From Diphasiastrum complanatum (Eukaryota; Streptophyta; Lycopodiopsida; Lycopodiales; Lycopodiaceae), in the NCBI GenBank assembly GCA_029204225.1, contig MU832062.1, positions 1 through 64,000 of the forward strand: a stretch of 64,000 nt of DNA, in the 5' to 3' direction. Below the pieces are notes generated by a model, which did not search any database, was not told the DNA's origin, and saw only the letters and a program-made list of their open reading frames with translations. A program made the position numbers and the translations under genes. Positions 8,186 to 52,201 of the stretch are shown piece by piece. Positions within the stretch are counted from its first letter, which is position 1; the number at the start of each line of letters is the position of its first letter.

Positions 8186-8990
8186 CACTACCACCTGTAG
8201 AGCATTTGTTGGATGCAGCAGAGAATGTGTGTTTCCAGGGAGGTGTTGAAAAATTCCCACATTTCATTCATTTTTTGGTGGAGATGTGTTGTAAGTCAGG
8301 CGGGGCGTTAGTAGACCACTTCATGGGATGTGGTGGTTCATTGTACGCAGCTGCTAGCACAAACATGCACTGTATTGCAATGGAGAAGGACAAACATTTG
8401 CTGGAGTTGGCTTCCAGGAGATATGGTGAGGGCATTTTTTGATCCAATTGTTGCTTTCTACTTTGTTGTCTCGCTTCACATTTCTAACATCCTTTATTAT
8501 TTTTCAGCTACTTTGCTATAGCTTGCCAATGTGTTTATACAAATGATGTTGTGGTTCGTTTGGGGAGTCTTCATTTGTCCTGTTAAGAGAGCATCAAGTT
8601 GGACTATGCTGTTTTGTTTCATGTTACGAACTACTTTACAATTGTTTAAATAGCTTAATGTTCATATTCATTGCATTGAGTTACTCAAACAGAGACCCCA
8701 ATGGCTTCATCCCATACATACGACGTAGAAGCAGGGGCGGAGGATGAGGCACAAATCAATGACTGGGACATAGAAGAGTTCCAAGGATGGTAATAACATA
8801 TTTATTGTATGATATTTAAAGATGTTGCAGGATAACGCAATGCATCGCTACTTTAATAATAGGAAATTGCCTATTTATGCACAGTCCTTAGCCAGAGAGA
8901 TGGAGCATTCGTATGACACGGTTCGTGTCGAGAAATCAAGGAAGCATCCAAGATTGTTGTTTGTTGACGACGAGTGTGTGAAGGATTGAG
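8186..8990 (+). pseudogene. N-4/N-6 DNA methylase-like gene, C-terminal half
   Basis: The frame LPPVEHLLDAAENVCF, then FPHFIHFLVEMCCKSGG, then ALVDHFMGCGGSLYAA and CIAMEKDKHLLELASRRYG (8186-8425) matches the end of beta-class amino-methyltransferases: a helix before motif I, the FxGxG AdoMet loop (here FMGCGG), and the acidic residue after the next strand (MEKD). A splice donor (ATATG|GTGAGG) follows at 8425, and plausible acceptors lie at 8507 and near 8690. The frame MASSHTYDVEAGAEDEAQIN (8701 onward) and DNAMHRYFNNRKLPIYAQSL (near 8830-8985) may be later exons, but their phases do not all agree. After the 8508 acceptor the phase gives a TAG. It begins abruptly at an inversion junction; the matching N-terminal half is at 52202-54209. 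Host gene or transposon cargo is unresolved. Confidence 0.55.
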
Positions 8991-9714
8991 TTAGATAGCA
9001 CATTTTTCAAACAATTGTTTTTGTGTTCTATCATTTTTTTAAAAGTGATTTATTGAACCGGTAGTAGCCGATGAATCTAGAAGTCATGTATTTTTTGAGA
9101 AATGGATATTCGGTTTTGAATATAAAGTTTGGTTTGGTATCTATTGTAATGAAGGCTTAGTTATAAAAGGCATTAATATGGATAGTGTAGTCTTGGACAT
9201 GTTCTTTGCGTCGTTTTAGTATTCTCTTGGGAAATGATTTTGGTATTCGAATGTTTCTCTTTTATGCTCTGTGGGCTTTGACCGAGGTTGAAACTCTGTT
9301 CCATTTTCATGAGACTGTGTTATCTTTTCAAAAAAGTTACATCACAGCACTGTTCCATTTACTTGATACATCACCACTCTCATTTAAACGCTCCACCCTA
9401 CACCATAGTATCACAATCCAGCTCCGTACGAGGGTCTTGCATAAGGGAAACATATTGCTTGCATTCCTCCAAAGCAAAATGTTACAGAAAAGTGTAGCCT
9501 AAGAGCCTCGCAATCGTTTCTCAACCATAAAAATGTTTACAAGAAACCTCATGTAAATACATATTACATCAACTATGAATTCAAGAAGATTTGAGCTATT
9601 ATTTTTTTCATGCATCTGTTTGTAATTCTACATTTGTGCTGGAAAAGTGGCATATACCATACATAGTAGTAAGAATAAATGATGGACGACGAAGGTAAAT
9701 AATATCCACATACC
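8991..9714. other. Spacer without recognisable gene
   Basis: AT-rich sequence after the methylase-like remnant. An open frame at 9206-9502 shows no known motif. No repeat structure stands out until the CACTTA-type tract begins. Confidence 0.3.
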
Positions 9715-11115
9715 TTAATAAACCACACCAACATCAACGCTTACATTTAAACTAAGTTGCACTGTCACAGTCACCACACTATCACACTCACACACCTACA
9801 CTAGCACTAACACACCTACATCCACACTCACGCTTGCACTTAATTACCCTTGCACTTATGCTAATTTACACTCATAATTATAATTGCTTACACTTACACA
9901 CTAACACTTATACACTTGCACTAACGTAGTCTCGCACTTACACATAGATTTGTATTCACACTTGGACTAATACTTATTTACGCTTGCACCTAGACTTATA
10001 TTAAAAATCTTGTACTTGTTTACATAAACTAGCACTAGCACTTGCACTTAGTGATGCAACTGAAGATCTTAGTGATTGAAAGTGAGTGGGGCATTGGAAA
10101 CTATAGATCATGTATCGAAAGTTAGGGATGATAATTATGTCCTATCTCCTCCACCATATTCGCTTCGGACTAAAAAATACACTAACTTATTAACCCACAC
10201 TGACGCTAATGGTTGCACTTAAACTTACTTACGATTACTTACACACACACAACACTAACACTTACCCCCTTACACCTATGCGTACAATTGCACTTACCCA
10301 CTTACATGTGTACTTACGCATGCACACCAAAACATACACTACTACACTCACACTTACATCCACTAGCACATTGACTTATATTTGCACGCTTAGTTATATT
10401 CGCACACCCTCGCTTACACTTACTTACACTTAAGCACTAGCACTTACCCTTACGTTTACACGCTTAGACGTATATTCACACGTACACGTACGCTTGCACT
10501 TACTTACAGAACAGTTATAATTTCTGTTCTATCTCCTCCACCTTATTCAATTCAGATTCAGAATTAAACTTAAATACACCCACGGTGCAATGATAACACT
10601 TATACTTAAACTAACCTGCACTCCCACATTCACGTCCACACTCACACCTACACTTAACTACCCTTGCACTTACTCTAATTTACACTTTACACTCACAATT
10701 ACAATTGCTTACACTTACCCACATATATTCACACGTGCACATACACTTATAACACTTACACACTAACACAGTCTTGTGCTTACACGTAGATTTGTATTCA
10801 CACTCAGGACTACTTATATTTACTTGCGCTTGCAATAGACTTATGTCAAAACACTTGTATACATAACTTGGTGAACTAAGTTCAACGAGTGAGACAATGG
10901 GTAGTGTAGAACATGTATCAAATAATGTGCACACTAACACGTACACACATATGTTCTAACACATACACCTTAACCTTACATCTACTGACATTAACAATTA
11001 GACTTGTATTCACACACTTAGACTTGTACTTACTTATGCTTACACTTACACACACACACACACACTCATTTGGACTATACATAAGCCCACACTTTACTTA
11101 CACTTACGCAAACTT
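9715..11115. repeat. Degenerate CACTTA/ACACTTAC tract with higher-order duplication
   Basis: About 1.4 kb dominated by variants of CACTTA, TTACAC and ACTAGCACT, strongly depleted of G on this strand. It also has a longer period: the segment near 9834 (ACTTAATTACCCTTGCACTT, then AATTGCTTACACTTAC, then AGATTTGTATTCACACT) recurs in the same order from about 10646. Two linkers also recur: CTATCTCCTCCACC at 10142 and 10529, and a segment ending ATCATGTATC/AACATGTATC near 10110 and 10905. The period is therefore roughly 0.8 kb with many indels. Open frames here are composition artefacts. Confidence 0.75.
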
Positions 11116-11189
11116 ACATTTAAAAAAAAACTCGCAAACCTTTTACTCGTAGATTGTCCAGACTCAGTGTCTAGTTTGCATTGTTTTTA

Positions 11190-12880
11190 TGATCAATCAA
11201 TCAATCACTCTTGTGAGGCATTAAATGAACTCATTCAAGGTCCAAAGTAATATACTTTCACATGGTATCAGAGCCAATTACAAGATCATAAACCATTGAT
11301 CTAATACAAATCCATATTTAGCAAGTATTAGTGCTAAAAACTAGTATTGAGAGGGCGAGCTAGAATCTACATTTTGGGGAGGGAATATGATTTCAGACTT
11401 GGTAGGGATCCAAATCCGTACTATCTCCACGTGTGGGCACTTCTGAACCTGCATTTACTGCATGATATTCATTTGATCCATAAAAATTCAATTTGTGAGT
11501 TCTTGATGAGATTTTTGGTGCTAATCTTAGGAAAGACTCCAAGTTTGAGTGACCATTAATTAGATTTGAATTTGATTCATGACATCTAATTAATCTAGGC
11601 TAAAATTAAGACCTTTTTAAGTGATGTACAGGTCTTGAAAGTACATCAAGAAGAGTGAGGTAGATTGAGTCAATTCTTTTGTCCAAAAATAGCCAAGATT
11701 GGCAAGATTTGATTGTAAGTAGATTTCACATAATCTAATCTTCATTCCATCTTTGTGAGGGAGTGCTAGAACTAAGTTTATAACTCCATTTGTTGGATTA
11801 TAAATCTAATTTGAGTGAAACACTACAAAAGAGACGTTTGTGAGTTTCTAGAGTCAATCAAATCAATTTCTCGTTTGTGGAAATCACTAGTAAGATGAAA
11901 TCTATTGGAGCTTACCTTCTAGAAGCTAGTGAGAGATTGAATTCTACAAATTATGCTATTTGGAAGGTTAGGATGGAGTCACTAATGGTGCTCCAAGATT
12001 TTTATAAATTTTTGATTGAAGATGAAGATGAACCTCTAGGTGCACAAGAGTTGATCAGATACAAGAAAAGATCTAGACTAGTACTTCACTGTGTGAAGAT
12101 GAATGTAAGTAATGATCTTTTGAGAGAAGTATCATCTTGTACTAGTGCTAAAGAGGCTTGGGATTATTTGAAATCAATCTATGAAACAAGCCACACTTCT
12201 CCTCATGCTTAGAAACCAAATATTGCACAACATGAGAAGAAGTGAGGAGAGTGCACAAGACTATGTGCTTAGAATCAAGTCTCTAAATAAGGAGTTGGCT
12301 TCCATTGGAGAGAAGATTCATGATGGAGATCTTGTACAAGTGATTTTCAATGGCTTAGGAGATGAGTTCTCCAATATGGTTCAAAGTTTTGCCATCCAAG
12401 ACACTTGCCATCTATTGATAAGCTCCATAGGTGCTTGTGCCGAAAGAGTGTAGGATGCTCCATGCAAAAGCAAGGATGGATTCCTTATCATTGCAAGAAG
12501 GAGATGAGAGAGTAAATTTATCATTCAAGGGCAAGAAGAAGACAAATGGATCTAAGAAGGATCAAGAAAAGGAGGCCAAGGAGGAGGATCAAGCATCAAG
12601 TTCAAGGGAAAGAGACAAGTCAAAGCTAAAATGCTTCTTTTGTGAAAAGAAAGGGCATTTTGCATCCGAGTGCTACAAGAGGCAAAGAGCACAAGAGGAA
12701 GAGGACAAACAAGGAAACCATGCACATGAAGAGGAGGAGGATGAAGGAGATTTATTCTTGATGGCATCTACATCCTCACCAACAAGCAATGGCAATTCAA
12801 GAGACACTTGGTGGATTGATAGTGGGGCTAGCCCCCAAATGTCTTGTGAAAAGGACTTTTTCTGCCAAACTTGGCATTTT
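11190..12880 (+). mobile_element. Ty1/Copia element, 5' part only (family A)
   Basis: A fossil of the same family as the element at 17740-23609. A degraded LTR end (…TTTCACA, to 11262) is followed directly by a primer site complementary to initiator-Met tRNA (TGGTATCAGAGCC, 11263-11275), a leader of about 0.6 kb, gag from about 11890, a CCHC zinc knuckle near 12630-12670 and the first residues of the aspartic protease (WWIDSGAS) near 12810. Integrase, reverse transcriptase and 3' LTR are absent. It is broken in several places and is clearly older than the full-length copy. Confidence 0.85.
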
Positions 12881-13054
12881 GCATTGATGAACAACATACT
12901 TGCATGGTACAATATTTGTAGCAAGCCTAAAGTCAAGATGGATTGTTTTTCCATTTCAACACTCTTTGTAGATTGATAATAATGAGCAGATACAATTGGA
13001 ATGGAGATGACATAGCTAGTAGACATTTTGACTATTTCTTTGCTATGATGAGCA

Positions 13055-13270
13055 TGTGAAACTACTGTACTTTAGGAACATAAATGGATCTACAAAAGAT
13101 CCACAAGAGTGATTGGATGCTTGCTTAACAATCTATCAAAAAACTAGACACAAAAAAATTGATCTAGATTGGCAATTTGACAAACAACAAGCATTAACAA
13201 TCAAAAGCATTGATTAACATTGAAATCCGAGACCACACGTGTGCAAAAACACACTGATGCACGCACTAAA
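13055..13270 (-). mobile_element. LTR fragment of Copia family A, inverted
   Basis: TGTGAAACTACTGTACTTTA and the following 200 bases are the diverged reverse complement of the 3' end of the family A LTR (compare 23400-23609), including the shared CACACGTGTG block near 13234. It starts with the LTR terminal TG. No internal sequence is attached. The 12880-13054 stretch between it and the gag piece is unassigned. Confidence 0.7.
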
Positions 13271-13793
13271 TGTCATTTGGTATTGTGCACCCACTGTCCT
13301 TAAATACCAAGCTTACTAGGGACACCCTTAATTAGTATTAAGGCTAGGGTTTAGGGCTAGGGCACATGGTGTGTGGGGCAGGTGGGTGGCACACTCACAG
13401 GTGGCAAGGGTCCGCATGGGCATGGGGCAGCGCGGCACGGGCTAGGGCAAGGGTATTTTTGGGCAGTGGGGGGAGGCATGGTGTGCATGACGAGCATGGG
13501 CGGGCATGGACACGAGGCAACGGCGGGCTTGGACAACCGGGGGGGGGTGGTACGACGGGCACGGGAGTGGGCAAAACTATTCAAAAGAGAATCTTGAGGC
13601 ATGACACACCTCAATCGCATTGTGATTTCAATGAAAACTGACAAAGCAAGTGAATTTTTTTACCTTCATATCTACTTGCATAGTTTTCATCATAGCATCG
13701 GTAGGATCTGCTCCCAACAAGTGAGTTACCCCTATTTACTTTTCTCTTATTCTTGTTATGTTATGTTCTTAACCCATGCCATGCATAGTTGTC
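13271..13793. other. Spacer with a G-rich low-complexity block
   Basis: 13325-13580 is rich in GGG, GGGCATGG and GGGCAGG, with one run of 9 G near 13541. It sits in an otherwise AT-rich setting. Both strands give open frames of about 90 codons made of Gly/His or Pro/Cys, which are artefacts of composition. GGGTTTAGGGCTAGGG at 13347-13362 is only telomere-like. Confidence 0.4.
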
Positions 13794-14262
13794 CATGCTC
13801 AGCATAGAATCATGTTCGCAGCATAGCCTTCTATGCTCAACATAGAAGTCTATGCTAAGCATAGAAGACCAGAGAAGTCTATGCTCAGCATAAAAGTCTA
13901 AGCTCAACACAGAAATCTATGCTCAACATAGAAGTCTATGCTTAGCATAAAATTCTATGCCTTGCATAGAAGTGTGTTGTCAACATAGGAGTCTACGCTC
14001 AACATTGACTCTCGAGGCTCGTTGTAGACTCATGTTTGGGATGGAAGTCGATGCTGAGCATTGGTAGAAACAAAAACAAAAAGAAGATTTCAAAATTTTT
14101 TTCATGAAAATTGTACCACATAGACTTCTATGCCAAAGCATAGAAGTTCAAGTCAAGACTCAAGGTCTATGCTAAGCATATAAGTCTGTGCTATGCATAG
14201 ACTTCTATGCTCAACATAGACCATCGAAACTCGGTTGGACTTCTATGCTTAGCATAGAAGAC
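13794..14262. repeat. Palindromic minisatellite, TCTATGC-N3-GCATAGA type
   Basis: A run of about 15-20 imperfect units, each a near-palindrome of the form TCTATGCTNAGCATAGA followed by AG or a few bases, so units repeat about every 20 bases. A 14060-14120 stretch is largely free of it. Isolated units recur outside the block (CTATGCCTAGCATAG near 16516). Each unit can fold on itself and neighbouring units can pair. Confidence 0.8.
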
Positions 14263-17200
14263 TTATAAGAAATTATTTTTTAACTGAATTACTTAAAAAA
14301 TCATGAATTTTTCTTAAAAAAATTGAAATTATTAATGAGTTTGTTGTCAAAAAACAAATTTTTTTCTAATTTTGTATGATTTTCTTCTTTTTGCAGCCTT
14401 TTTAATATATTTCATCTTGAATATTGATCATGTCAAAAGTCACTTTTAATTTTTTTTGGAAAACCAAGAGATGTTCTAATAAGATAAGAGCAAGTTTATG
14501 TTTTATGTTACTAAGGGATTACATGATACTTGCCCCAAAGAGCTATTTATCTGGGTAGCAAAAAAAACAAGAAAAGGTGACACAATGTTTATGTTGAAGG
14601 GAGAGTCCTTGAGGATCAGCCAGATGATGTGGAGCAAGATAAAATGTGCAGAATTTTTATTAAGAAAATAAGAATGTTGTGGCTGCTTTGGGTGTGGAAA
14701 AGGACCCAGTTTAATTCTAGAAGTTCTAAGGCTGTTGCTTTGGCAAAAGGTAAAGGGCAATCCTCGAGCGATTCTTCCAACAAATCCCTTACACCTTCAG
14801 CAGAGACAACTAGACCTAATCCAACATTAGCCTCCAAAAAAAACATTTGTCCTTTCTAGTAAAGTTGCACCAGAGGCCGAGCCAGGAATTAGAAGTTGTC
14901 CTAAACAAACAGTAAAAAGACACAGAGTTGTCCAATCTGAAGAATAAAAAATGAAGAATGAAGAATATGCTTATAATCTCCCTGGGTCCTCCATCAAGCC
15001 CCTTGGAAGCTCTTATGAAATTTCAAAAATACATGACCAAATTCATTTAACTAAGAAAATAAGAGAAACTACTATAATACTAGATATTGACCAATGTCAT
15101 AGACCCCCAATTGATCTAGTAATTGGAAAAAGGCCAATAGAAGTCTGTGAATCCAGTGAGACGCATGTACATAATTTAAAAATTAAATTTAAAGATCATA
15201 CTCTAAGCAATAGTTACTCTATTTGTTGTTCTAGTTGATTCTAGCGAGTGTCCCTCTATAGATAGCTTTGATTTTGCTGCTCTAGATTTTTTTGTCCTCG
15301 GTGGTATCTATAGCTTACAAGCTCGTAAGTAGATTGCCAAAGAATAACCATCACACATACCCTCCTTTCATAGTGTCTCGACTGTTGCATTTGCTGGATT
15401 GACTGTCGATGAAAAAAAGCTCCTCACTTGGAACCACAACATTGACCAGGACTATAGAATGAAAATGACGGTCATCCAAAGAATTCGATTCTTTCACAAA
15501 GAGGATTTGAGGTGTGTAAATGATGGAGAAGTCAAAATACTGGAGTTAAAAGCACTATGTGCTCAAGAGACTGCCTTGTCTTTCGATTTAAAGGATCATG
15601 CACAAATTTTAACGAAATATGACAATTTTTTTCAGCTTGCATTTTGAAGTGGTCAAACATTTTACATATCTAAGCATTGCATAGTTTTCCTCTGTTTAAA
15701 GGATTTAAAATGAATGATTTGTTATTTTATTTTCATATTTTGTTCATTGTTTCAGTTTTGGTCTCTTGTTGACAAAATATTTGATAAATGGGAGAAGTTT
15801 GAAATTAAGGGCCAACTTGTTCAAGGTGCTTCAAAGTCCAAGAAAAAAACTAGCGCTGGCTCTCAAAGCGTGAAGCCCATTGCAACTGATATGGGTATGT
15901 CAGAAGGAAAAAATATACAGGGAATCAGCTCAATTGAGCTAATTGTAAGTGTTCTAGCGAGAGTTGCTGATGGTCAACTGTCTTTAGCTAAGATGGGCAA
16001 AGAATTCCAAAGGTAGAAAATATTATATACTTACTAAAATAAATTTGTGTGAAATCTAACAATTAAAACACATTTTATTGATTTGATATTAACAATCAAC
16101 ATTTTATTTTCAGACACAAATTATTATGAAAGTCCAAGAAGCCCTTGTCACAGGGTTAAACTACAAGGATTTTGATGAGTGACAAAGGGTCTTTTCCTTG
16201 AGTTCAAGGAATGAGACTATTAGCCCATTTTTTATTCTTTTTAGAGATATGGTGCGTTTTTAACCATGCTAATAAGCATAGAGTCAATGTTTTAAAGAGA
16301 TGCCTTTACAAATTCCTAGCTATATATTACCATTCATTTTCATGCTAAAGCAAAGGCTTTCATTCTAGCTTGGCAATCAGCAAGTGTCTAGAAAGCTTTG
16401 TTAGAAGTTTGTAATGTTGGCATAGAAAATCTTGTTTGGTAAGTTTCTATTACATCAAAATGATTTTTAAAATGTTTCAAGCTAATATTGCTTTGTAATA
16501 TGTTTTTTATATGTTCTATGCCTAGCATAGAGATCTATGCTATGGAACTATACTCAAATTTTAGATTTTAGATGCATTATCTCTTAAAGTTTTATTTGAA
16601 CTAAAAATGCATTGTGAAAGAATTCTATTTACTTAATTTTATTACAAATTTTAGTACTGTTCTATTTTAAGCATAGAAATTTGTTTTTAAAATTCTTAAT
16701 ATTTTAACTAAATCTTATATTACAAATCTTTTGTGCTAGGATTTATAATATTTGATCTCTTTCAATCAGAAAACAACATATGATGGCTAGCATGTTTTCA
16801 GGTAAAAAAGACTATTATTCATATGCCATTTCTTTTGTTAACATTAACTGTTTTGCATAAATAAGAACTTATGATTCCATATATTGGATATCTTATCAAA
16901 GAGGACCACAATGTTCTTTCTTGGATTTTTAGCAGAACAAGCCATCCAGATATCATAAAGGATCATATGAATGGTACAACACTTAGTGTTTCTAAAAGAG
17001 GTGATTTTTTTTATGGAATGGCATTTAGCTGGAGACTTGAAGACATTGAAAAGTATGTTCAATGTATCTCATGGAGCAAACTCGAAACATCCATGTCTAT
17101 ACTGTATGGAATCATCAAAAGACATTTCAAGGAGCATAGGACTTTCAAGAGATATTGAAGATCCCAAGTTGAAACCAGTACTACCAATTCCTCTAGAGAA

Positions 17201-17280
17201 TGTTCATATTTGCATGCTTCATGATCATAGAGAAATTAATATACCTTCATATTTTGTTTGCATGGAATACTAAGCCAGGT
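14263..17280 (+). pseudogene. Decayed transposase-like region of unclassified family
   Basis: Many short plus-strand frames separated by gaps. Support is best at 16871-17273: HLAGDLKTLKSMFNVSHGA followed by NSKHPCLYCMESSKD, with a CxxC pair, then LPIPLENVHICMLHDHREI. This order (GDLK..L...A/GNSK.PC..C) is one I associate with uncharacterised transposase-like proteins in other eukaryotes. I cannot name the superfamily. Frames at 14629-14859, 15399-15647 and 15714-16016 could be other exons of the same element, but nothing in them is recognisable. The region is broken many times. A possible C-terminal piece of the same family is at 62651-62908. Confidence 0.4.
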
Positions 17281-17739
17281 CATCATCAAAACAAGCAATA
17301 GCTCAATTAGAGGAAGTGTTGTCAAAAGCGGGTCTTCATAAAGGACATGTTAAAATACAAAAAGATGAAATGCTTTCGGGAAAAGCAGGAAACATACCTA
17401 GTAAACCAAGCATAGGAGGAGCCAAAGCTTGTCAATTTTTTAAAAGTTGACAAGGATCCAATACTTGATTTGGAAAGATTTAAAAATCCAAGAACTCTTG
17501 GACATAGGTGGCCAATTCTTGGTTTCCCATTCAGTAGTTAATAAAGCGAACTTTACATTCAACATCGTCAATCATGAAAAACCCTTATGGAATTCCTCCA
17601 GGAATTCCTCCAGGAATTCAGCCCAAGTCACCGGTTTCACACACAGTTTCCTCCACCCAGAGGAGGCCTTGCTCTCAAGAAACAACAAAATCGACAAAGA
17701 TTCGATTTTTTCTATTGGGACATTGGGTAGCTGAAAGAG
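17281..17739. repeat. Older repeat, left part, split by the young Copia
   Basis: 17500-17739 (GGTTTCCCATTC, AGTTAATAAAGCGAA, GGAATTC repeated, CACCCAGAGGAGGCC) resembles 39970-40190. The continuation after the Copia element (23610-23700: CAACAG.TTATCCA, CTTCGGGGCGTTAAC) resembles 40195-40260 (AACTTTGGGGCATTTTAAAC). One older repeat was therefore cut by the insertion at AAGAG. A short tandem GGAATTCCTCCA doublet lies at 17590-17616. Confidence 0.6.
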
Positions 17740-18430
17740 TGTGAAAAATTGCCTACATTGGCAAATCTAGCCATGTAGAATATTGTACATTTTGTCAATA
17801 TTGTTTGTTGGTTACTTGAATGGCCAAAGTGCCACTTGTACATACACACCTAAAGTAGGTTACCACGAGTCAAGAGGAGTGGTTGTGTCTATTTGGTAAT
17901 GATTCCTACTTTGTAGGATCTAGACCATGATTTATGATGAGATTTGTACCTACCATGCACCTACCAAGCATGACTCTTGGATCTAGGCTAGGGTTTTCAC
18001 ATTAGGGCAAGAAAGTGGAGTCTACTTCCTTATTACATGCTGGATTTTCACCTAACTTTGCAAAGGAAGTGTGTTTTACTATGTATTTCCATTCTCCATA
18101 GTGAGTAGATAGAAACTTTTTGGAGCCTCAAGGAGAAACTCGAGTTTCCTCTCATTGTATGGTGATTACTCTATTTTTCCAATGAAACCCAGCTTTGGCA
18201 CTTTGTAAACACTGTCTACAGGCCGTACTACAGCCTTATTTCCACACGTGTGGAGTTGGATTAGACTATTTGATCAATGCTTTGATTGTCTCTACTTGTT
18301 TCCTATCAAGCTGCTAAACTAGATCTTGTTTTCTGATGACTAGTTTCTGATAGATTGTTTAACAAGCATACAATCACCTTGTGGATCATTCAAAGATCCA
18401 TTTATGGTCCTTAGTACTGTACTTTTCACA
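17740..18430 (+). repeat. 5' LTR of the young Copia element
   Basis: Begins TGTGAAAAATTGCC and ends GTACTTTTCACA. It contains the palindrome CACACGTGTG, shared with other family members in the window. Confidence 0.95.
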
Positions 18431-18442
18431 TGGTATCAGAGC
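18431..18442 (+). other. Primer binding site (initiator-Met tRNA)
   Basis: TGGTATCAGAGC immediately follows the 5' LTR. It is complementary to the 3' end of plant initiator-Met tRNA, the usual Copia primer. Confidence 0.9.
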
Positions 18443-23895: not shown

Positions 23896-23898
<3 letters not shown>

Positions 23899-40454: not shown

Positions 40455-41003
40455 TGTCATGCCCACGACTGGTCTCGGGTAGCGTGTCCACGCTAGGGAT
40501 TAGTAGACCAACAGCCCATAATTAACTATAAGTTAATTGTGACTATTAGAGAATTGAGGCCCTTATGTGCATAAGGTCATAATTAATGGTTGTAGGCCTA
40601 AACTCATGATGGTGGATTTATACGGGTCTATCAGTGAGTCAGTGGGGAATTGGATGACATGGCCTAGATAGGCTGCAGAAGTGTTCAATGAGGTGTCACA
40701 GTGCAGTACTAGTGGTGCATGGGCCTTGGAGGGTATAAGTATAGCTATTGGGCTTCACTAGTGTATCTTTGATTGTGAGACTAGTAACCGTATTGGGCTC
40801 TCACTAGTGTATCTTTGATTGTGAGACTAGTACCCGTATGCTGCTGGTGTGATGCCTCATTCCTCTTTGATATTGATCCATAGCTTGGGGGCTAGATCCA
40901 TTCGATCTAAGATTGGTTGGGTTGGTTTGTCCACCATCTGTTTCTCTTGTGTTGCTTGTTATTGGCATGCTTAGAATAGTATCATGTGTGTAGGACTTTA
41001 TAG
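40455..41003 (+). mobile_element. Family D LTR, longest copy
   Basis: Starts TGTCATGCCCACGACTGGTC right after a polypurine tract, so it is a 3' LTR in plus orientation. It ends near GGACTTTATA. It contains a tandem 45-bp doublet at 40751-40840 (CACTAGTGTATCTTTGATTG in each). Fossil; the rest of the element is not adjacent. Confidence 0.7.
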
Positions 41004-43575
41004 CTATAGCTGATGGATACTCAGCAGCCACAATCACCACAAGTGCAATCACCTGCTGCTAGCAGATCCAGGTCCCAATCACCCATCGGGACATTACAAC
41101 TACTAATATCATCCCCTCAATCCAACAAATAGTTGATTCTGTGGTAGCATTCCAACAACCACATTAGGCCACAGATTCAGGGGAGGGAGAAAGAGAGCTG
41201 CTTGTAACCACACAAGCAAAAGACACACTTGCAGTTGATCCCACTAAAGAAGACAAAGGCTAAGAAGACAGATGGGCAATCCAAAAGAACTCAATCAGGA
41301 AGAGCACCCTAGTCATAAACCTCGGGTTTTGAGCACCAAGGAGATGAAAATCCTTAAGGGAAATTACAAGAATTGGGAAATCACTCTTCTCCTTCAACCA
41401 CTCCTTCATCCACACCATCCACATTCCCGCCATCTAGTTCTCTTGCCACAACACATGTATCTATTTCCATGTCTGTTATATCATCCACACCATCTATTAC
41501 AACTTCCATCATCAGAATACCACCACCACCACCACCTTACCTTACATTTTTCTATTATTCCACCATCACACCATTCATCTCTTTTCAAACCCTGGTAGTC
41601 TTACCGAGGTAGCTAAAGGTCATTACAGTGTTTTGTGGAAACCAACTACCACCTATATTGGTTGGTTAGCCAGAAAGAATATTTAAGAAAGCAGGTGAAA
41701 CTGCAAGAAAAGATAATAAAAACTAAAACAGAAAAGAATCAAAGAGATCCAGCTGAAAAGGACAATAAAGGAAAGATCGAGAAACAGACAAAATCTTGGC
41801 CAAGTCTCAACAAATGATGGATCAAAAGAAAAAATGAAGATGACACCTGTAGGTCATAGTGAGCTCCACACCAAGTAATTGGTGATCAAAGCTCGACACT
41901 GCTAAGGTCTTAGGTTGCAACTGTAATATTGTCAGTTCCTTCACCTTCTCACCAAACCCCTCATCATGTTTCCCTACCATCCATCATCAACCTATTTGTC
42001 CAAATTTGTTTCTACCACCAATTTCATAACCCTTTGAAGACTGATAACCCAAGGTTTGTGCAATCTACCAATTGAAGGTTCTCCTCTTCTCGTCGAGACA
42101 AGAATCTCAATTAGACTGAGACTTTGATTGGGAGAAAAATTGAGGAAACATCCAAAAGCAGAAAGGAGAATACAAAGAGTGCCAAGGCAATCGATGAATA
42201 TGTGGCAAGACTTACGAGAAAATTGTTCGAGAAATCCAAGGAAAAGATCCAAAGGCAATTTTCAGAGGACAATATACTCAAATGATAGAGACCTGGAATA
42301 CAAACAAGTTTATACCAGTGATTAGGCCTTATCTGGGATCTATTCTGTTGGGCATAAAAACGAGATTCATCACATTCAAAGATAGGCTACAAGAAGTCTC
42401 TTGACAAAAAGAAAGCCAAAAAAGACAAAGGAAATCTTGAAAATCCATTGTAAATGTTAAAGTTGTTGCTGAGAAGTGCAACGATATTGACAAATAAGTT
42501 CTTGGTTTTACACAAACAAATGTTGATTTATGTCTTTCTAAGAATCAAGCGTCAAAGCTGAGGCATTGTAGTGGGACCTGCAACAGTATAGGGGGAGGAT
42601 AATATTAGCTGATGCCATGGCCCTGACGTGTCGATGAAGTGCCTCATCACCCAAAAAGAGCTTCTAGCAGAGATGAAGTTGAGAGCCGAGTTTGAGAGCA
42701 CAAGAATTATTAGTGCTAGGCTAAAATGTACAGTTGTGAGCCCCATGGTAATTCCCTAAAGATGGATAGCCATGTGGGAGCTAGCGATTTAGACTCTCTC
42801 AACTTGAGTTATGTTTTTTAATAAAGAGGCCTCCTATTATCAAGTAAGAGGTAGAACCCAAATCTTTATAGATTGGGGTTCACTCAGCTGTAAGAGGTGG
42901 AATCCAAAATATGATAAAATTGGGTTCACCAGCTCGTGGGTATAGATAGAAGCCTCATCCACGAGTTCCATAGCATGTGTTGTGTATTGTAATGCTGCTA
43001 AAATGTTTAATGAACATCCTTCAAACTGCATTCCCTTCCATGCTCCATCTTCATGCATTTAGTTTGGGTACTGATGTATGAGTGTGATTGTTGTTGATTT
43101 CTTCTTTTAAGGATTGGTTTGGGTTTAAAATCAAGTAGATGTGTAGGACTTGGAGACTGATCCACCATTCAACTCAATTTTAATGTTTTTCGGTTTTTGG
43201 CTCCCTGAGGAGTTCTTCTTACAATTGTTGAGTGATAGTTATAATAAGGACTTTGTAGGATTCTCATTATTTCAGTTTTGATGTTGTGTTGTTGATTCTG
43301 TGATTTCAATAGGAGTAGATTCAGTCTAATTCTCTGTTTTTTGTGTAGATTAGATTAGCAATAATCTACAGATTTTAAGAACAAAGAAAGAATTGAAACA
43401 ATTTGTAGAACCATAGAAAATGAGTTCCTGACAGATCCTATATCTAAGATGAGCTACCATTGCCAATCAAGGATTGAAATCAGGTTGTAGGTGTGTCATA
43501 TTGACAAGCGGGACACACTACCATTATACTACTGAATAGAAGCGTGACTGAGCCCATTGCCTAATAGATTTGTAG
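41004..43575. other. Long stretch without recognisable gene
   Basis: Short plus-strand frames (41272-41598, 41635-41817, 42128-42325) have no known domains; 41380-41590 is a CCA/TCA-rich low-complexity stretch. A loose 45-bp tandem pair lies at 42847-42940 (AAGAGGT.GAA.CCAAA in each copy). It may be a decayed element, but I see no LTR, reverse transcriptase or transposase motif. Confidence 0.3.
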
Positions 43576-44761
43576 TCACGTGATTCCTGGCCATGATGAA
43601 ACTCTGTCAGATAGAGAATAAGCGCTAACATCGAGTAGTTGGCCCGTTGAGAAGCATGTTTTGTGCCAAACGGAATCTGTAAACAATGAAAGATTTTGAA
43701 CAAACATTAAAAAGAGATTCTTCAGCAAGCAATTCAATATTTTTGTCATAAAATAAAACATGACTGACATAAATATGTTCATAGGGTCTAGAATCGGATC
43801 AGTCGATATCAATGCCACATTCATCATGTTGAATGGGAAGGTGATAGGCGTATCTAAAGTACAATCAACCATAGGAATGTCGCTCAACTTTGAATTGTTA
43901 TCTCCTTGACACATGGAGCAGTTACCAATGGTGGTTTTGGTCTTGCTGAACAATCCTTGTAACAATGTCCATAACCGCATTCCCGACAAAATGGAGTAAA
44001 CTTTTCTTTATTTGGACATTAAGCAATTTTGTGATTTTCACCACATCAAAGCATCCAAGTAGTGCTCTAGCCCACTCTCTAGACTGTTGTTGTTGTGTAG
44101 CAGAATATATAGTGTATTGCTCTAAAGAACCAATATCTTTTTCAGTATTGTAATTCCATTGGTCATTACCAACCAAAGATTCTGGTTCCATCATATTTGC
44201 AGAAGTAGCATGTTGTACTGGAGGAGCTAGCAAAGCTAATCCAAGGCCATGGGCCTTACCTTCAGGTCCCTTCCAATTTGGATTATCTCTATATTGGAAT
44301 TTAGCATATCTTTGTTGAATAACCCGAGGATGAAACGAACAAAAAATTATGTCATGTCCAGAAGAATTGCATAGATGACAATAGGTATCCATCATACGTC
44401 GTTTCATCATTGTGAACACTTGTTTATGGTTTGCATTATGCTCTTTCAATGCTTTCAACTTTGCATCGAACTAGAATTGCATCTTCTCTAACTGCATTTG
44501 CTGCTTCTGGCCAAGCTTTTCAAATTCATCCATCACAAACTCGGCTGTTGCATTGATGTTTATAGATGCAATAGTTGTGGATGTTGTAGTCGTTTGTTTA
44601 GCTATATATGACAGCATGCTAACTTTTGGTTCATCATCTGAATCTTCATCCTCTTCGCGTATTGCATCATCCATTGCATTTTGTAATGACGTACAATCAG
44701 CTCGTCGTTTAAGTTCCCAGCTAATCCCCTTAGGTAGAACTGCTAAGAACCACATAATCAT
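43576..44761 (-). mobile_element. Gag fragment of an LTR element (element E)
   Basis: Minus-strand frames with LPKGISWELKRRADCTS then NAMDDAIREEDEDSDDE near 44750-44630, and a CCHC-like YCHLCNSSGHDIIFC near 44390-44340. They resemble the gag pieces at 29243-30015 and 61534-61870. A minus-strand primer site at 46549-46560 and an LTR edge at 46563 could be its 5' end. Broken in several places; no pol is seen. Confidence 0.6.
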
Positions 44762-46259
44762 AATGTCATTATTAATTAGTTCAGAATCACACTCTGATCA
44801 GAGATGCTTGACCATTCAATGTAATCTCACACCCTTTCTCTCTTTCCCATATTAATTTTATATAAAAGTCAACGATCTTCCAATGACTTTCTGTGATCAA
44901 ATCTGTTAAACTTTATCACTATGCACCAATTCATATTTGTGCACGTTTTATGAATCTTGAGCATTTCTCAACCGTCGCCATGGTAAGTTTGCTGGCATGA
45001 GTCTCACAATGACAGAAATTTGCTGCATATATACAAAACTCCAACAGGCTTGCTCATATAATGCTCAATAGATTTTCATGGTCGCAAAGTGAGTTCTAAA
45101 TGCTCAGCCCACCTTTTGATCCATCTCAGCGCCAGTAAGACACTAAATGGTTCGACACCCTCCCTACGCCGAGAAAGAAACACGTATGCCACCACTCCCT
45201 TAACACTGAATTAACCTCAGTCCTTGTCATCAATCGACATAATTAAAGGTAATTTAAAATCATTAATGATCACCGTCGCAACAGTCCCTTCAGCAGACTT
45301 TTTCGAATGGAATAAACCAACTTACTTTAGCTAATATTTTCCACACAACCGAACATTCATTAATTCAAAAATCTGTTTTAATAAACTGCAATCTTATAGT
45401 GTCGGGACGTTGCAAAGTTGTAGCACCTCAATGTTCTGGCACCGCAACGTTATGGCACCGCAACGCTATGGGACCGCACCACCATGGCATCACATCGCCA
45501 TGGGACTGCATCACCATAGCATCGCATCGCCATGGCATTGCAATAGCACCGCATATACAATTTAATCCTTCGTTCACCACCATCTGCTGGCTGCAAAAAG
45601 TACCCCATACAGTATGAATGCTCCCACAAGAAACCACAACAACATGTTGACACCGAACATCTGGCAATCCCTGTTCCAGATTCCAAATTTCTGCATCTCC
45701 AGTCGTTCTCTCTGTTGCCTAACTATCATCTGGTGTTGTCTATGCCACAACAATTCTCATGAGTTTACGGGATCGCCAAATTCTCCCCTCGATCATTGCC
45801 CATTCTTCTTGATGTGGATGGCATCATCGTCTCCTTGGTACCTTGCTCAGCCATATTTCTGTAGTAAAATTAACAATATCCCGTAATCCAATTACCGTCA
45901 CTATAATAACATTGCCTTAACTTCTCGCGATATGCAACAACATCCCACAAGATATGAATCCTAATTAAAATAAAACTCAACAACTCCAAAAAACTAGTGA
46001 CTAACCCGTGTTTCTTGTTTTTTTTTCCCATGATGCAATAACCACACGTGCTACATTATGGTACACACCACCATACAAAGATTCCTTTTCCTGGCTGCCA
46101 TCATGGTTCTCCAAGCTTATGCTGGTTGAATGTGATGCCCGCCTTTATGATATCAAATAAGGAGTAAATTACTCCTCGATTAACATCGGCTGCAAAAATT
46201 CATGCCATGATCCCCCCTTTTCTAATACCTGCTTTGCTGCAAATTAGTCACAAAATCTT
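44762..46259. other. Spacer with only the minisatellite recognisable
   Basis: Apart from the minisatellite at 45410-45555, no gene or repeat motif is seen. By position it could be the long leader of element E. Confidence 0.3.
45410..45555. repeat. Minisatellite, about 15-bp units (GCATCGCCATGGCA type)
   Basis: About nine imperfect units such as GCACCGCAACGCTATGG and GCATCGCATCGCCATGG. It generates open frames on both strands (His/Gly-rich or Met/Trp-rich), which are artefacts. Confidence 0.8.
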
Positions 46260-46540
46260 GACCTAGAAAAGCAATATTGGATCCCACAATCAAGATCAAT
46301 AAAAAGCATTGATTAAACATTGAATTTTGACCCCACATGTGTGTGGTACAAACTTCAGTACAACCTATTATCAGAGATTAAGTGAAATCAAGTTTAGATA
46401 TCAAATCATTCACAAAAACTCCAAACAAAATGTGTAGAAACCTCAAGATTGCCAATGTGCTCCAAAAATTATATCTCCTTACTATGGAATGATGGATTGT
46501 ATGTACTATAGGGCTCTTCTCTATTGGGTTCTGTAGGTGT
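46260..46540 (-). mobile_element. Diverged LTR remnant related to Copia family A
   Basis: GCATTGATTAAACATTGA, then CACATGTGTG, then CTCCAAAAATTATATCTC and ACTATGGAATGATGG follow the order of the reverse-complemented family A LTR. Very old and without clear ends. Confidence 0.45.
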
Positions 46541-46548
46541 GCTTGTTA

Positions 46549-47282
46549 GCTCTGATACCACCTGTTGGGGGTCATATGTTAGCATTTGAGAAAATAATTT
46601 ATTAGCTCTGATTGATGAATATGGAATCCAAACAAGAGACAACACAATGTTAAATTATAATAGGATCTACATAAACTGTTGATTCAAACTATTTCTTAGA
46701 TCAGAGGAATATTTTTGTAGGTGTTTGAGGCAACCATGAAGGCAACGATATAATTAGGCATCTATGACAACCATGCTACCTTCAGGTTAGATATTCTAAA
46801 TGAGTCATGGGAACGAGTATCAGTAATAGAGAAAGAAATTATCGGAAAGCACTTATCAGTGCAAACACACATAAAGAAATTAGAGAATCTATATATTAAC
46901 CTGTTGTAATAACACCAATCAGATCACAATCATGTGTCTGAGAATGGTTCACATTAGTAGTGCACTATGTGTTGTGATCCTATTCTGATGGTTATAGATT
47001 GAATAATATCTCTACTTATTGAATTACTTTCACTCTCTCTAATGATCTCTAATTTTGTGGAATTAGATACTCTGATACAATGGAGTTCACGGAGGAACTA
47101 TGATTCACGCTTCCGCTATTTGATTGACTTTGATTCATCTATGGTGGATATTTCATCATTCTATCTGTTTATGTTATTGTATATATAAATACATCAATTG
47201 TGGTGGTCGTGGAGATTACAACTGTACCGTTTAGTGTAAACTATGTAAGTAATAGTCGTGAAGTGGTGCAATAAATGCATAA
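46549..47282 (-). mobile_element. Primer site and LTR edge of a minus-strand element
   Basis: GCTCTGATACCA (46549-46560) is the complement of the initiator-Met primer site. Two bases later TGTTGGGGGTC (46563) looks like the end of an inverted LTR. The far end of this LTR is not clear; it would lie somewhere before 47283. It is probably the 5' end of element E or another lost element. Confidence 0.5.
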
Positions 47283-48510
47283 TGTGAAAGATTTCAGATC
47301 CTTAAGATCCAATCTACTTGAATGATATTTGGTTAGAAAGAGAAATACACTACCAATTTCACCAATGTAGAAAAATCAGCGTCTACACAATTTGAGATGC
47401 AAACACTAATAGAACTTGATCAAACTTGAATGAAATGATTATGTACTGTTGCTGTCCATACAAAACCAGCAAGCTACTGTATTTCACACGTGTGGATCCA
47501 AAAATAGCAAATATAGATCATTCTACACATAGAATTGCAAGCAATCACCAAGATAGTGCACCAATGGATAGTAGAACCCAAGAGAACCATGTATAAGCAT
47601 GAAATGAGATAGATAAGAGAGAAGATGACTCTCTCCATGAGTTACATCCTTTTATAGCAGGTTCAAACCCTATTTGGCCACTTGGCTTTCCCACCAAAAT
47701 GCTAACCCTACCAATTTTGGGTCTAGATTCAATGTACCCAACTTATTCAAATTTAATCTACTCAAACTCGCATTCTATCTTTCCCACACTTTCAAAAAGT
47801 GTTTATTCAAATGAAATTTAGACTAATGGACTTTGAAAAGTCAACCTCCAAGTCTAAAACAAGTTTTGGCCTCAATATGCCAAATATGAAAATATTGCAA
47901 AATGTGATGAAACTAGTTGAATCTTTCACACTCCCTCTTCAACTAGTTTTAGCATAGACTTTGATAATACTCCAAGTGAAGTCCTATGCTTCATGAACAA
48001 GTCTTTTTCCCAATGATTTGGTGAAGATATCAGCTACACATTCCCTTGAAGACACATGTTGAAGCTCCACCTCCTTTGCAATGACTCGCTCCCTCACAAA
48101 ATGATATTGTATCTCAATATGCTTGCTCCTCGCATGAAAGATAGGATTGGATGCCATTCTTTGGGCTGATTGATTGTCACAAAAGATGATTGGGCTCTCT
48201 GAAAAATCCAGCAAGTGAAGATCCTTGATCATCCTCTTGATCCATACCATCTCCTTTGTGCAATGTATAAGAGCTTTGTACTCGGCCTCACTAGATGACA
48301 ATGAGATAGTGGCTTGTTTCTTTGACATCCATGATATAGCTCCATCACCTATGAAAATACAATAAGAACTAATGGATTTCCTATCCATTATATCTCTAGC
48401 ATAGTCCGAATCTGAAAATCCAAAAAGATTAGGTGATGATCCCTCATACAATATGCCAAAATCTCGAGTTCCAATGATGTACCTCAAAACTCGCTTTCCT
48501 AGCTTCCAAT
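47283..48510 (-). mobile_element. Copia remnant: 3' LTR plus RNase H end of pol
   Basis: An LTR of 648 bp (47283-47930) with matching ends TGTGAAAGATT...AATCTTTCACA. Next to it on the internal side is a purine tract (GAAGAGGGAG on the minus strand), and from 47984 to about 48490 a minus-strand RNase H/pol end: GFSDSDYA, SLSSSEAEYKAL, CDNQSAQ, HARSKHIEIQYHFVRE. This motif order is typical of Copia. The rest of the element is missing beyond about 48510. The LTR sequence differs from families A and B. A fossil. Confidence 0.88.
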
Positions 48511-48944
48511 GCTCCTAGCATAGTTTTTGCCAATAGAACTTTGATCCATCATAAGAATGATCTCCTTCCTAGGAATATATCTCCTTTCAAGGATCATGTA
48601 ATTCTCAAAATAGAAACAACCATAATTGATATAGAGAATAGTGTCCACTTGGGATGCTTCGCTATTTCTTACATCAATTTTACATGTAAAAATGTGACTA
48701 GAACATGAAGAATCAAATAGAATGTAAATGAAATGATTCCACCATGCTTCCAACTCTGAACTCTCTGGAAAAATACAGCAAACAAACAATAAATGTGAGT
48801 GATAAACTTTTGCTTGCATGTCTCCTCCTCCTTTGTCCTTTGTTGCCTTGTATCCACCATGATACTCCATGAATGAGCCTCCATCTTCATCTTGCCACAA
48901 GAAACCATCAAACCTTGGAAATCCATGAGTAGGTGAGTACATTA
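48511..48944. other. Spacer between Copia remnant and SET-domain frame
   Basis: A minus-strand open frame of 155 codons (48499-48966) overlaps this stretch but has no recognisable motif and is probably antisense noise. It may contain the promoter side of the SET-domain frame. Confidence 0.3.
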
Positions 48945-49085
48945 ATGATGATTCTATCCATCTCACAACACCTCACACAAATTCTACTATGGATTCTATT
49001 CATTCCACGATATCACCACACATCGATTCTATCCATCCCACGACACCTCACATCGATTCTATCCATCCCACATCACCTCACATAC
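48945..49085 (+). repeat. 30-bp tandem repeat coding for DSIHPTTPHI
   Basis: Four to five units of about 30 bp (GATTCTATCCATCCCACGAC then ACCTCACATC). The last three, inside the frame from 48989, give DSIHSTISPHI, DSIHPTTPHI and DSIHPTSPHI. The period is a multiple of three from the second unit on. Confidence 0.85.
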
Positions 49086-49885
49086 CTTGTGTAGAATCTC
49101 CTCTTCTTCCTATCCCATCTAGATTTACTCCATTAAAAAAAAGAACACGACTTGGATGCATTTTGACAAGATTTGAAAATGAACAACCAAATTTATGTAT
49201 TGTTGACTTATCCAAGAATGTTTTAAATTCATTGACTGGGTCTCCCCTTCCTCCCTACCTAGATGCATTGGTTAAGCCCTTTGATAGAAAGAAATATTCA
49301 TGTTGGCCTGATAGAGTACCACTACCATTATGTGGAACATCATTTTCATATTGGGGTCATATGTACATGATCAAGCCAAGTGAGCACTTTCCTAATGCGG
49401 GATTGGGTTTATTTTCTTTGACTAGCATTGATGTCCCCTTGAATAGTGTTGTCACATTAATGCCTTATGCAGGACCTCAATACAATTGGCGTGATTGGCA
49501 TGCTCTATGTCGTCACCAATGGAGAATATAGGTTTATGGCTTGAATGCCAATGCTTGTTCTTTGGAAGAGCTACATGTGCAAGGAGAGAATGTTTTGAAA
49601 TCACATCGTATGTACATTGATGGGCGTCTAGAAAAATATGGCAATATTGCTGCATATATAAATAATTCCATTGGGCACCCTTCATTAACTAATTGTGATT
49701 TCGAGGAATGCACCAATGGAAAGGAAGAATACTTTTCTAGGAACTCAAAACGTACATACGTAATGGTATGTGCGATAAGGCCCATTGAATGTGGTGAAGA
49801 GCTATTCATCATATATAGCTTCAATTGCCCTCTTCCAAGATGTGTACAAAAGGCTTTGAGCCAAACTCAAGCATGTACCTTGTGA
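48989..49885 (+). pseudogene. SET-domain protein (methyltransferase-like), one in-frame stop
   Basis: An intron-free frame of about 298 codons interrupted once by TAG at 49529-49531. The N-terminus is a DSIHPTTPHI repeat. The SET fold starts near HFPNAGLGLFSLTSI (the GxG AdoMet-binding region) and continues with NSVVTLMPYAG. After the stop come YGNIAAYINNSIGHPS and LTNCDFEE, matching the RFINHSCxPNC motif in form, then CGEELFIIYSFN, matching ELxxDY. Several usual catalytic residues are replaced (INNSIGHPS for INHSCxPN), so lysine methylation is doubtful. It lies 166 bp upstream of the TNP2 N-half on the same strand, so it may be cargo of that CACTA element or a host gene next to it. Confidence 0.6.
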
Positions 49886-50050
49886 ATATCAAAATACATT
49901 TTATCTATTTAGTGAGAGCAAGTTATGTTGAATGTGAATTAATTGTTTTTTTTATATTTCATATTGCATGCCTTAATTTAAGATATGGTGTTTGATTTGC
50001 ATGTCTTAATTTTAGTTTTAATTTTCATGAATGACAATCTTATATGTTAA

Positions 50051-52201
50051 TTGATGAATATGTTAATTTGTTTCCCATGTTTGAAAGACTATGGATTGTC
50101 ATCTAGCTCTAGTGACGATGACAACAACCACTCCATATCCAAAACAAGATTAGCATACGATAAGCCGCACATAAATCAACTATCATGTCGTGAGCGTATG
50201 GGATTGAGAGCCATGATGAAAATAGATGGCTTCAGAATCAAGATCAAGTGCTGAAAATGATTTTTGCATTCAAGATGAAGTTGAAATCATGAACAATTTG
50301 ATAAATAATGTCTATGAGCATCATGATGTGGAAGAACACACTGAACATGATAGTGAATCATTTATTAGTGTCGAGGAAAAAAAATTGAGAGAAGAATCAA
50401 ACATAGCATTATATCCTAGAGCAAAGACAAGGTGTTACGACACTTTCCAATAATCCCACAATTGCAACGATTGTTTTGTTGCAAGTCTCTTGCAGAACAT
50501 GTGCATTGGCATGCTAGTCATCGTTCTTCAGATGAGATCATGAGAGTACCTTCAGACTCTCCTGCATGGAAACACATTGACAAAAAATATCCATGTTTTG
50601 CAAGTGAAACAAGAAATATAAGATTTGGACTTGCAACAGACGAGGTTAACCCCCTTGGAAAAATGTCAAGCACATGGTCTACTTGGCCAATGGTGTTGGT
50701 CAACTATAACATTCCACCTTGGCTAAGCATTAAAAAAGGACATCTCATGCTAGCACTTCTAATTCCTGGAAAACATAAAGTAAAAAATATGTACATCTAC
50801 TTTGCACCATTGATTGAAGAACTAGAACTACTATGGAAGGGAGTCCAAGTATATGACATCTCACGTCCACTTCAAGACACAACATTTTTGTTGCATGTGA
50901 TTTTAATGTGGACTATGCATGACTATCCAGGATTGGGCGATTGTTCAGGTGACTAGAAAATGAAATCACTTGTAATGTTTGTATATTTATTTTTCATGCA
51001 TGCAATATTTATTCTTTAAAAGAATTCTATTTATAACACGAATTGCATTTGATTCTTTTAGGTTTTACAACTTCTGGATATCATGTGTGTCTCATTTGTG
51101 GACCAAATATTGATGCTTGCCACTCACGTCATTTAAACAAAGTTGTGTATGAAAATCATCGCAAGTACTTGCATGATGAAAATCATTCATTTTGAAATGC
51201 TCATAGAAGAGGCTTTGGAGGAAGATTAGAAACAAGAATGCCTCCAAAGATAATGTCCGTGGCAAATTGGCACAAACTTTGGATTGAATCCGAGACTAAG
51301 CCAATCAATGGTATGAAAAGACTATCCATCTTTCATTGTTTACCATATTGGAATAACCTTTTGATCAATCACTTGCTTGATCCTATGCACATATTACAAA
51401 ATGTGGGTGAATCAATATGGAAACACTTGGTGGGCGACAAGGACAGTATTTCTGCCAGGCATGATCTACAAGAATAAAAAACAAAAAAAGATTACTGGCC
51501 AAAATTATGTACTGATGAAAATACCTATAGTATTCCAAGAGCCCCTTGGATTCTTACGAAAGAAGAGTATAAGTACGTACGGTCATTCATTTGCGAGATG
51601 AGAACACCAATAGGTTTTGCTCATTCACTACGAACATCATTCACAGTTGTAGGAAAACTCCATGGTCTAAAATCTCATGATTGGTTGAAGATGGTCGAGT
51701 ACATATTTCCAATGTGCATTCGTGGCTGTCTAACTGATCAACTTCGTGATGCCATTTACAAATTAGCATCTGTTGTCAGGTACTTAATTTTTTTTTTTAC
51801 ATCGATATCTTATGAAATTTCATGTTTTTTTTCTAATACAAGTTTGATAAAATAATATGAATGTACTAAAATCTAGTTATACTACAAACATGATGTAGAC
51901 GAATGTGAGGTAAGGAGATTCGTGAGATAGACGTGCAAACAAAACAAGAAGATATGGTGGAGGCTGTATGTATGCTTGAGAGGGATTTTCCAACTTCTAT
52001 CCTAGACATACAGGTGCATCTGCTTGTGCACTTGGTCCAAGAAGTTGGTATTGTCGGTCCTGTGCACTCAAGGTATAATACACTTGAATTTGATTTTAGT
52101 GGTTTCAATAAATGTAGTGTGATTCTTTCAGATTATAAATAACAGAATGTTCTCATTGATGCGTTAAAATTTTCTGTAGGTGGATGTTTTTTTTTGGAGA
52201 G
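50051..52201 (+). pseudogene. CACTA (En/Spm) TNP2-type transposase, N-terminal half
   Basis: The TNP2 core is unmistakable: FPIIPQLQRLF, WHASHRSSDEIMRVPSDSPA, FGLATDEVNPLG, WPMVLVNYNIPPWL, MLALLIPG and WTMHDYPGLGDCSG (50432-50949). After an intron (CAG|GTGACT to TTTTAG near 51060) come HVCLICGPN, LPYWNNLLINHLLDPMHI, LHGLKSHDWLKM, FPMCIRGCLTDQLRDAI and, after another intron, VHLLVHLVQEVGIVGPVHS. A last intron (52073-52179) leads to RWMFFFGE, cut at 52201. Sequence upstream of 50432 is less conserved, and part of the usual N-terminus seems lost. In-frame stops occur (TGA after DENHSF, TAA after HDLQE), so it is dead. The continuation LKDFVRQKTRPKG lies at 8185 on the minus strand. Confidence 0.88.

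What the first reader, a model, noticed from the sequence alone, without database searches (positions are those of the whole stretch)
8186..52201. A 44-kb inversion that cut two genes at once
Four half-genes pair up perfectly. The TNP2 transposase stops at 52201 (+) after GPVHS-RWMFFFGE and its continuation LKDFVRQKTRPKG starts at 8185 (-). The methylase-like gene stops at 52202 (-) in AKNHWIQ and continues at 8186 (+) with LPPVEHLLDAA. Flipping the intervening 44,016 bp rejoins both on one strand, and both reading phases agree at the same blunt split. TTCAA/TTGAA at the two junctions suggests microhomology. TNP2 relatives usually have a few more residues at the join, so a small in-frame loss is possible. 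Two genes being rejoined by one operation is hard to get by chance.
Basis: partly seen in the sequence, partly recalled or inferred. Interest (0 to 1): 0.92.

Follow-up and report, generated by a model that had tools for sequence, protein, structure and literature searches.

The report
Small inversion splitting two repeated genes
In a large plant-like genome, a 44,000-letter piece of DNA was cut at two places and put back the wrong way round, splitting a jumping-gene enzyme and a DNA-methylase-like gene; it looks like a clean but ordinary repair accident.

Summary
The core observation holds: one flip rejoins both broken genes. Both have unbroken copies elsewhere in the same genome: the TNP2 halves are adjacent in 16 of 16 distinct fetched places, and the methylase-like halves in 24 examined places, with 1 of 22 upstream-half hits not examined. 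CATGAA (6 bp) is missing from TNP2 and ACCATTT (7 bp) from the methylase-like gene. No inverted repeat was found linking the breaks, and at most 1 bp is shared at each join, so two breaks closed by end joining is the best reading. Misassembly is unlikely: C10 holds a collinear near-copy (155 mismatches in 85,112 columns) with the 8189|8190 join; C10 lost 1,812 bp over the other join. Both genes are members of multicopy families, and both copies carry stops. Side lead: 150 of 150 scored matches (1,605 first-look candidates) exceed the Pfam cut-off for N6/N4 DNA methylase in this genome (no plant among its controls).

The parts
8190..52204 (.). inverted segment, 44,015 bp
   Evidence: both end positions set by alignment to uninverted family copies
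8189..8190 (.). junction A: TNP2 3' half (-) joined to the downstream half of the methylase-like gene (+); present in C544 and C10 (C10 has G at the base matching 8190, C544 has A)
52204..52205 (.). junction B: TNP2 5' half (+) joined to the upstream half of the methylase-like gene (-); seen only in C544, because C10 lacks C544 51497-53308
48950..52204 (+). 5' part of a CACTA-type TNP2 element (Transposase_21), degenerate: in-frame stops at 51193-51195 and 51475-51477, nine-T run at 52187-52195
6155..8189 (-). 3' part of the TNP2 element, interrupted by an insertion at 6227-7077
52205..54125 (-). upstream half of the methylase-like gene copy (apparent introns, in-frame stops); homology to many other copies begins near 54125
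8190..8793 (+). downstream half of the methylase-like gene copy with the AdoMet-binding-like motif (PF01555 positions 170-219); last exon and stop at 8791-8793 read by eye; family homology goes on in the 3' flank to about 10209

Best explanation
Two double-strand breaks about 44 kb apart on one chromosome, one inside a CACTA TNP2 transposase and one inside a methylase-like gene copy, were repaired by end joining with the middle piece reversed. Six bases were lost at one break and seven at the other. The inversion is older than the split of the two assembled copies (C10 and C544) of the region. Shown: the ancestral order from family copies, the base-level losses, junction A in both assembled copies, no inverted repeat found at the breaks. 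Inferred: that the two breaks happened together, that non-homologous end joining (not a replication-based switch) closed them, and that C544 is an allelic haplotig and not a recent duplicate.
For: TNP2: the halves are adjacent in 16 of 16 distinct fetched places (17 loci, L008 and L016 being one place), 6 bp apart in 15 of 16 (12 CATGAA, 2 TATGAA, 1 CATAAA; the 16th, L020, is altered by a small deletion at the spot). Methylase-like: of 22 hits of the upstream half that reach the break, 16 have the downstream half next to them by coordinates, 7 bp net between them each time; 5 of the other 6 were fetched and all 5 continue through the break, 1 was not examined; 8 of 8 copies fetched, 3 of them at places outside the 22, have ACCATTT between the halves. 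Some of these places may be haplotigs of one another. C10 and C544 are collinear with 155 mismatches in 85,112 alignment columns of seven blocks over 3 kb and both have junction A. C10's 1,812-bp deletion over junction B leaves its flanks in the inverted order. No similarity between the +/-3 kb surroundings of the two breaks (E up to 0.01, word size 9, low-complexity filter on), and no repeat pair of 100 bp or more joining them in the self-comparison of C544. No N in the fetched C544 and C10 stretches.
Against: Junction B is seen in one assembled copy only. No reads could be mapped. No related species and no uninverted allele was available. At most 1 bp shared at each join is also compatible with replication-based template switching. 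The ranking of TNP2 relatives by identity does not correlate between the two halves (Spearman 0.14, p 0.57, 19 rows of which three pairs are the same place twice); identities span only 0.95-0.98, so the test has little power.
Confidence: 0.92

Rival explanations
1. Assembly artefact: the contig was misjoined twice and the inversion does not exist in the plant.
For: C544 is a small 89-kb contig and junction B is in that contig alone among the 40 scored matches.
Against: C10 carries junction A and the inverted order along the segment, with SNPs and indels of its own; each join lacks a few bases that the family copies have, as repair would leave and a plain misjoin of intact sequence would not.
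Confidence: 0.03
2. Inversion by homologous recombination between inverted repeats, such as two copies of one element in opposite orientation.
For: The region is repeat-rich and both broken genes are multicopy.
Against: The breaks lie in two different families, and no similarity was found between the two 6-kb surroundings at the sensitivity used.
Confidence: 0.01
3. Aberrant CACTA transposition, a transposase acting on ends of different elements, made the inversion.
For: One break is inside a TNP2 element.
Against: That mechanism is expected (recalled, from no call) to put breaks at element ends, yet family homology runs from the break for at least 190 bp on one side and 205 bp on the other and 6 bp are lost; the other break is in an unrelated gene.
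Confidence: 0.02
4. Replication-based template switching (FoSTeS/MMBIR) gave the reversed segment.
For: At most 1 bp shared at each join is tolerated by such models (general knowledge).
Against: No copied insert or extra segment at either join; simple end joining needs fewer steps.
Confidence: 0.06

Closest known systems
Simple-breakpoint chromosomal inversions repaired by non-homologous end joining
   Same: two cuts, reversed middle, losses of a few bp at the joins, little or no homology
   Different: nothing of principle; both breakpoints fall in multicopy families, so the ancestral sequence can be read from copies in the same genome
CACTA (En/Spm) transposons with TNP2, Pfam PF02992
   Same: Transposase_21 domain E 4.1e-50; many close copies, 95-98% identical in the compared parts
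   Different: this copy is split by the inversion, has in-frame stops and carries an 851-bp insertion; its terminal repeats were not found
Permuted (beta-type) N6/N4 amino-methyltransferases, Pfam PF01555, as in bdelloid N4CMT and Marchantia MpDN4MT1 (PMC8885841 and PMC8566409, passages seen)
   Same: the AdoMet-motif half matches PF01555 positions 170-219 and PHROG DNA methyltransferases
   Different: below Pfam's cut-off for this copy; the stretch 'LLDFPTGF' departs from the usual catalytic motif (motif recalled, from no call); multicopy, with apparent introns and stops; no relative at E up to 10 in about 5.8 billion proteins with a 254-aa query

Membership tests
Inversion by non-homologous end joining | ancestral order known and differs by reversal of one segment | tested here: met
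   fetched copies of both families are uninverted
Inversion by non-homologous end joining | no long inverted homology at the breaks, only 0 to a few bp | tested here: met
   no blast match between the two +/-3 kb surroundings; at most one shared T at each join by inspection
Inversion by non-homologous end joining | small losses or gains at the joins | tested here: met
   6 bp and 7 bp lost
Inversion by non-homologous end joining | dependence on end-joining enzymes | not testable with these tools
   needs genetics
Inversion by recombination between inverted repeats | inverted repeat pair at the two breaks | tested here: not met
CACTA alternative transposition | breakpoint at an element terminus | tested here: not met
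   breakpoint is inside TNP2 coding sequence
CACTA/TNP2 transposon | Transposase_21 domain | tested here: met
   E 4.1e-50, residues 34-173 of window 50432-50953
CACTA/TNP2 transposon | CACTA...TAGTG ends with 3-bp target duplication (definition recalled) | tested here: inconclusive
   no matching ends found in the window and none recognised in the two relatives L041 and L042
N6/N4 DNA methylase (PF01555) | match over the curated cut-off | tested here: not met
   22.8 bits against 26.7 for the window half; 150 other matches in the genome exceed it
N6/N4 DNA methylase (PF01555) | amino-methyltransferase activity | not testable with these tools
   needs expression and assay

The most novel reading that the evidence does not exclude
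The gene cut on the far side belongs to a greatly amplified, perhaps mobile, set of bacterial-type N6/N4 DNA amino-methyltransferase genes spread over the chromosomes of a plant: 150 of 150 scored matches over the Pfam cut-off, from 1,605 first-look candidates, some of them haplotig duplicates. If some members are active, this plant could write 4mC or 6mA with a dispersed enzyme family; or the genes could be cargo of an undescribed transposon.
Probability: 0.25. Interest if true: 0.65.

Novelty: new member of a known kind. Interest (0 to 1): 0.27.

Why it matters
As an inversion it is a clean case at base resolution: because both cut genes are repeated, the same genome supplies the ancestral sequence of both breakpoints, so the event can be read, and defended against assembly error, from one genome. 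The larger interest is the side lead, an amplified N6/N4-methylase family in a plant-like genome; the plant case met in the papers seen here was the Marchantia 4mC enzyme pair (PMC8566409, passage; also mentioned in PMC8885841).

Tried and rejected
CACTA termini and a target duplication across the inversion were looked for and not recognised, so the 'one element, two halves' test by target duplication could not be made. Whether the two TNP2 halves rank the same relatives first was tested: no correlation, low power. A protein search with an exon-joined methylase-like query gave 638 candidates, none at E up to 10. A ParB-like guess for the upstream part of a family copy ('WDGNHRLSAW') was not supported by Pfam or PHROGs. 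No PDB sequence matched the 84-aa half at E up to 1. tblastn against phages gave 4 weak records, best E 1e-3. NCBIfam gave only a weak match, CcrM 14.9 bits against a cut-off of 830. Literature searches were seen as listings; passages were seen of PMC9477723, PMC8885841, PMC8566409 and PMC12344493. No paper on this inversion was seen, and none on an amplified plant PF01555 family. The plant was not identified; a homosporous lycophyte was a guess from genome size and contig number and rests on no call.
Full report
Setting. The window is bases 1-64000 of C544, an 89,192-bp contig of a 1.745-Gb genome in 5,176 contigs.

Reading both strands around the two sites shows a TNP2 reading that ends near 52.2 kb on + and goes on at 8.19 kb on -, and a methylase-like reading that ends near 52.2 kb on - and goes on at 8.19 kb on +. 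The TNP2 part matches PF02992 (E 4.1e-50) and the methylase part PF01555 (E 9.8e-5, 22.8 bits, below the cut-off of 26.7); a PHROG DNA methyltransferase family gives E 4.5e-8.

TNP2 break. The own genome was searched with 401 bp over each site; 40 matches were scored each time, of 1,266 and 585 first-look candidates. At site A, all but C544 itself and C10 stop at window 8189, one of them at 8187; at site B all but C544 itself stop at 52204. In 13 places listed by both searches the two halves lie side by side, 6 bp apart in 12 and 5 bp in 1 (read from the tables). In the 17 fetched loci (16 distinct places) the halves are adjacent in all 16; between them stand CATGAA in 12 places, TATGAA in 2, CATAAA in 1, and 1 is altered by a small deletion. 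Some of these places may be haplotigs of one another. The family reads LERF-MK-VLKDFV; the window lacks these 6 bp. Two in-frame stops stand further up in the TNP2 5' half, and the 120 bp around the first of them are identical in C10.

Methylase-like break. 811 bp downstream of the break gave 49 matches (67 candidates, 40 scored; C544 and C10 included), many full-length at 88-92% identity; 2,096 bp upstream of it gave 43 (676 candidates, 40 scored; C544 and C10 included). Of 22 upstream hits that reach the break, C544 itself left out, 16 have the downstream half next to them, with 7 bp net between each time. For that count 25 of the rows were used, those that begin within 7 bases of the break, C544 and C10 left out. 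Five of the other 6 were fetched and all 5 continue through the break; 1 (C18:12438153) was not examined. Of 8 copies fetched, 5 are among the 16 and 3 are further places; all 8 have ACCATTT between the halves, with small local variation beside it. That makes 24 examined places with the halves joined and none without. The window has lost ACCATTT. At the base matching 8190, C10 has G, as do 9 of the 13 fetched copies; C544 has A, as does 1 of the 13 (L060), and the other 3 have T or C. So the A of C544 is probably a later change, but an older variant is not excluded.

The flipped segment is therefore 8190-52204 (44,015 bp). At each join one T could belong to either partner, no more. TTCAA near junction A is normal TNP2 sequence four bases from the join, and TTGAA at junction B is formed by the join. 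No repeat was found linking the surroundings of the breaks (pairs of 100 bp or more, +/-3 kb). This is the picture of two breaks closed by end joining with slight trimming.

Real or artefact. C544 matches C10:30725120-30811499 in the same order along its length, with several insertions and deletions and 155 mismatches in 85,112 alignment columns of the seven blocks over 3 kb. C10 has junction A, with two differences from C544 in 401 bp. C10 lacks C544 51497-53308, a 1,812-bp deletion that removed junction B and left its outer flanks in the inverted order; no base is shared at that deletion's ends. C10 also lacks about 2,244 bp at 9517-11760; because two uninverted relatives carry homologous sequence across 9516 (L058 to about 9615, L059 to about 10209), that is more likely a loss in C10 than a gain in C544. 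There was no N in the fetched C544 and C10 stretches. Two copies with their own differences make a misassembly unlikely; that they are alleles is inferred. The inversion is then older than their split. No read data were available.

What was broken. Neither gene was a unique host gene. The TNP2 copy is one of many and has stops. The methylase-like copy belongs to a dispersed family; it has a stop where 3 of the 5 relatives displayed have a sense codon, and another where all 5 displayed have one (8 were in the script; 5 were displayed). It differs upstream of about 54125 from five fetched relatives, which share further sequence with one another there. A GH32 gene on the - strand (Pfam match at 57080-57988; extent of about 55.7-58.8 kb by eye) lies outside the segment.

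The side lead. A six-frame search with PF01555 gave 1,605 first-look candidates in this genome; 150 were scored and all 150 exceed the curated cut-off, best E 1.1e-13, with matches on each of contigs C1-C24. Some rows on small contigs look like haplotig duplicates of chromosome rows, so distinct loci are fewer than 150; many rows have no stop inside, others have up to 13. The 14 named control genomes of that search rang in 11, all of them bacteria or archaea, so whether this number is unusual for a plant is not tested here. One member (L065) gives PF01555 at 47.8 bits and is only distantly similar to the window's gene; its database relatives are 9 short proteins without a name, the best 66% identical over 77% of the query. 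PMC8885841 (passages) says that the bdelloid enzyme is of bacterial origin without eukaryotic homologues and mentions the Marchantia enzyme; PMC8566409 (passages) describes MpDN4MT1a/b in sperm. No paper on such an amplification was seen, which cover open-licence papers only. Whether the family is mobile, expressed or active is open, and the window's own member is below the cut-off.

Verdict. A genuine, ordinary inversion, well resolved, present in both assembled copies of the region; interest low to moderate. The lead worth following is the methylase family.

Noticed in passing
whole genome G000; window members 8190-8793 and 52205-54125: 150 of 150 scored matches exceed the Pfam cut-off for N6_N4_Mtase (PF01555), from 1,605 first-look candidates, on each of contigs C1-C24 of a plant-like genome; some rows are haplotig duplicates, many are in open frames, others hold stops.
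   Followed up: partly
window 51497-53308 and 9517-11760: C10, the near-identical copy, lacks these 1,812 and about 2,244 bp; the first deletion removed junction B.
   Followed up: partly
window 6227-7077: 851-bp insertion inside the TNP2 3' half, with ends CATAGTTGCA.../...TGCAACTATG and an 8-bp direct repeat ATTTGAAC on both sides (read; absent from relative L041); looks like a small hAT-type element.
   Followed up: partly
window 17737-23609: Copia-type retrotransposon (gag, integrase and reverse transcriptase domains) between two 694-bp direct repeats that are 99.7% identical, so probably a young insertion inside the inverted segment.
   Followed up: no
window 57080-57988, - strand (gene about 55700-58800 by eye): GH32 invertase-like gene (PF00251 E 1.2e-83) just outside the inversion, apparently not cut.
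   Followed up: no
window near 54125: Homology to the methylase-like family starts at the same place in 12 of the own-genome hits (query start 176 or 177), while five fetched relatives share further sequence with one another; the window copy may have an older 5' change or a different first exon.
   Followed up: partly
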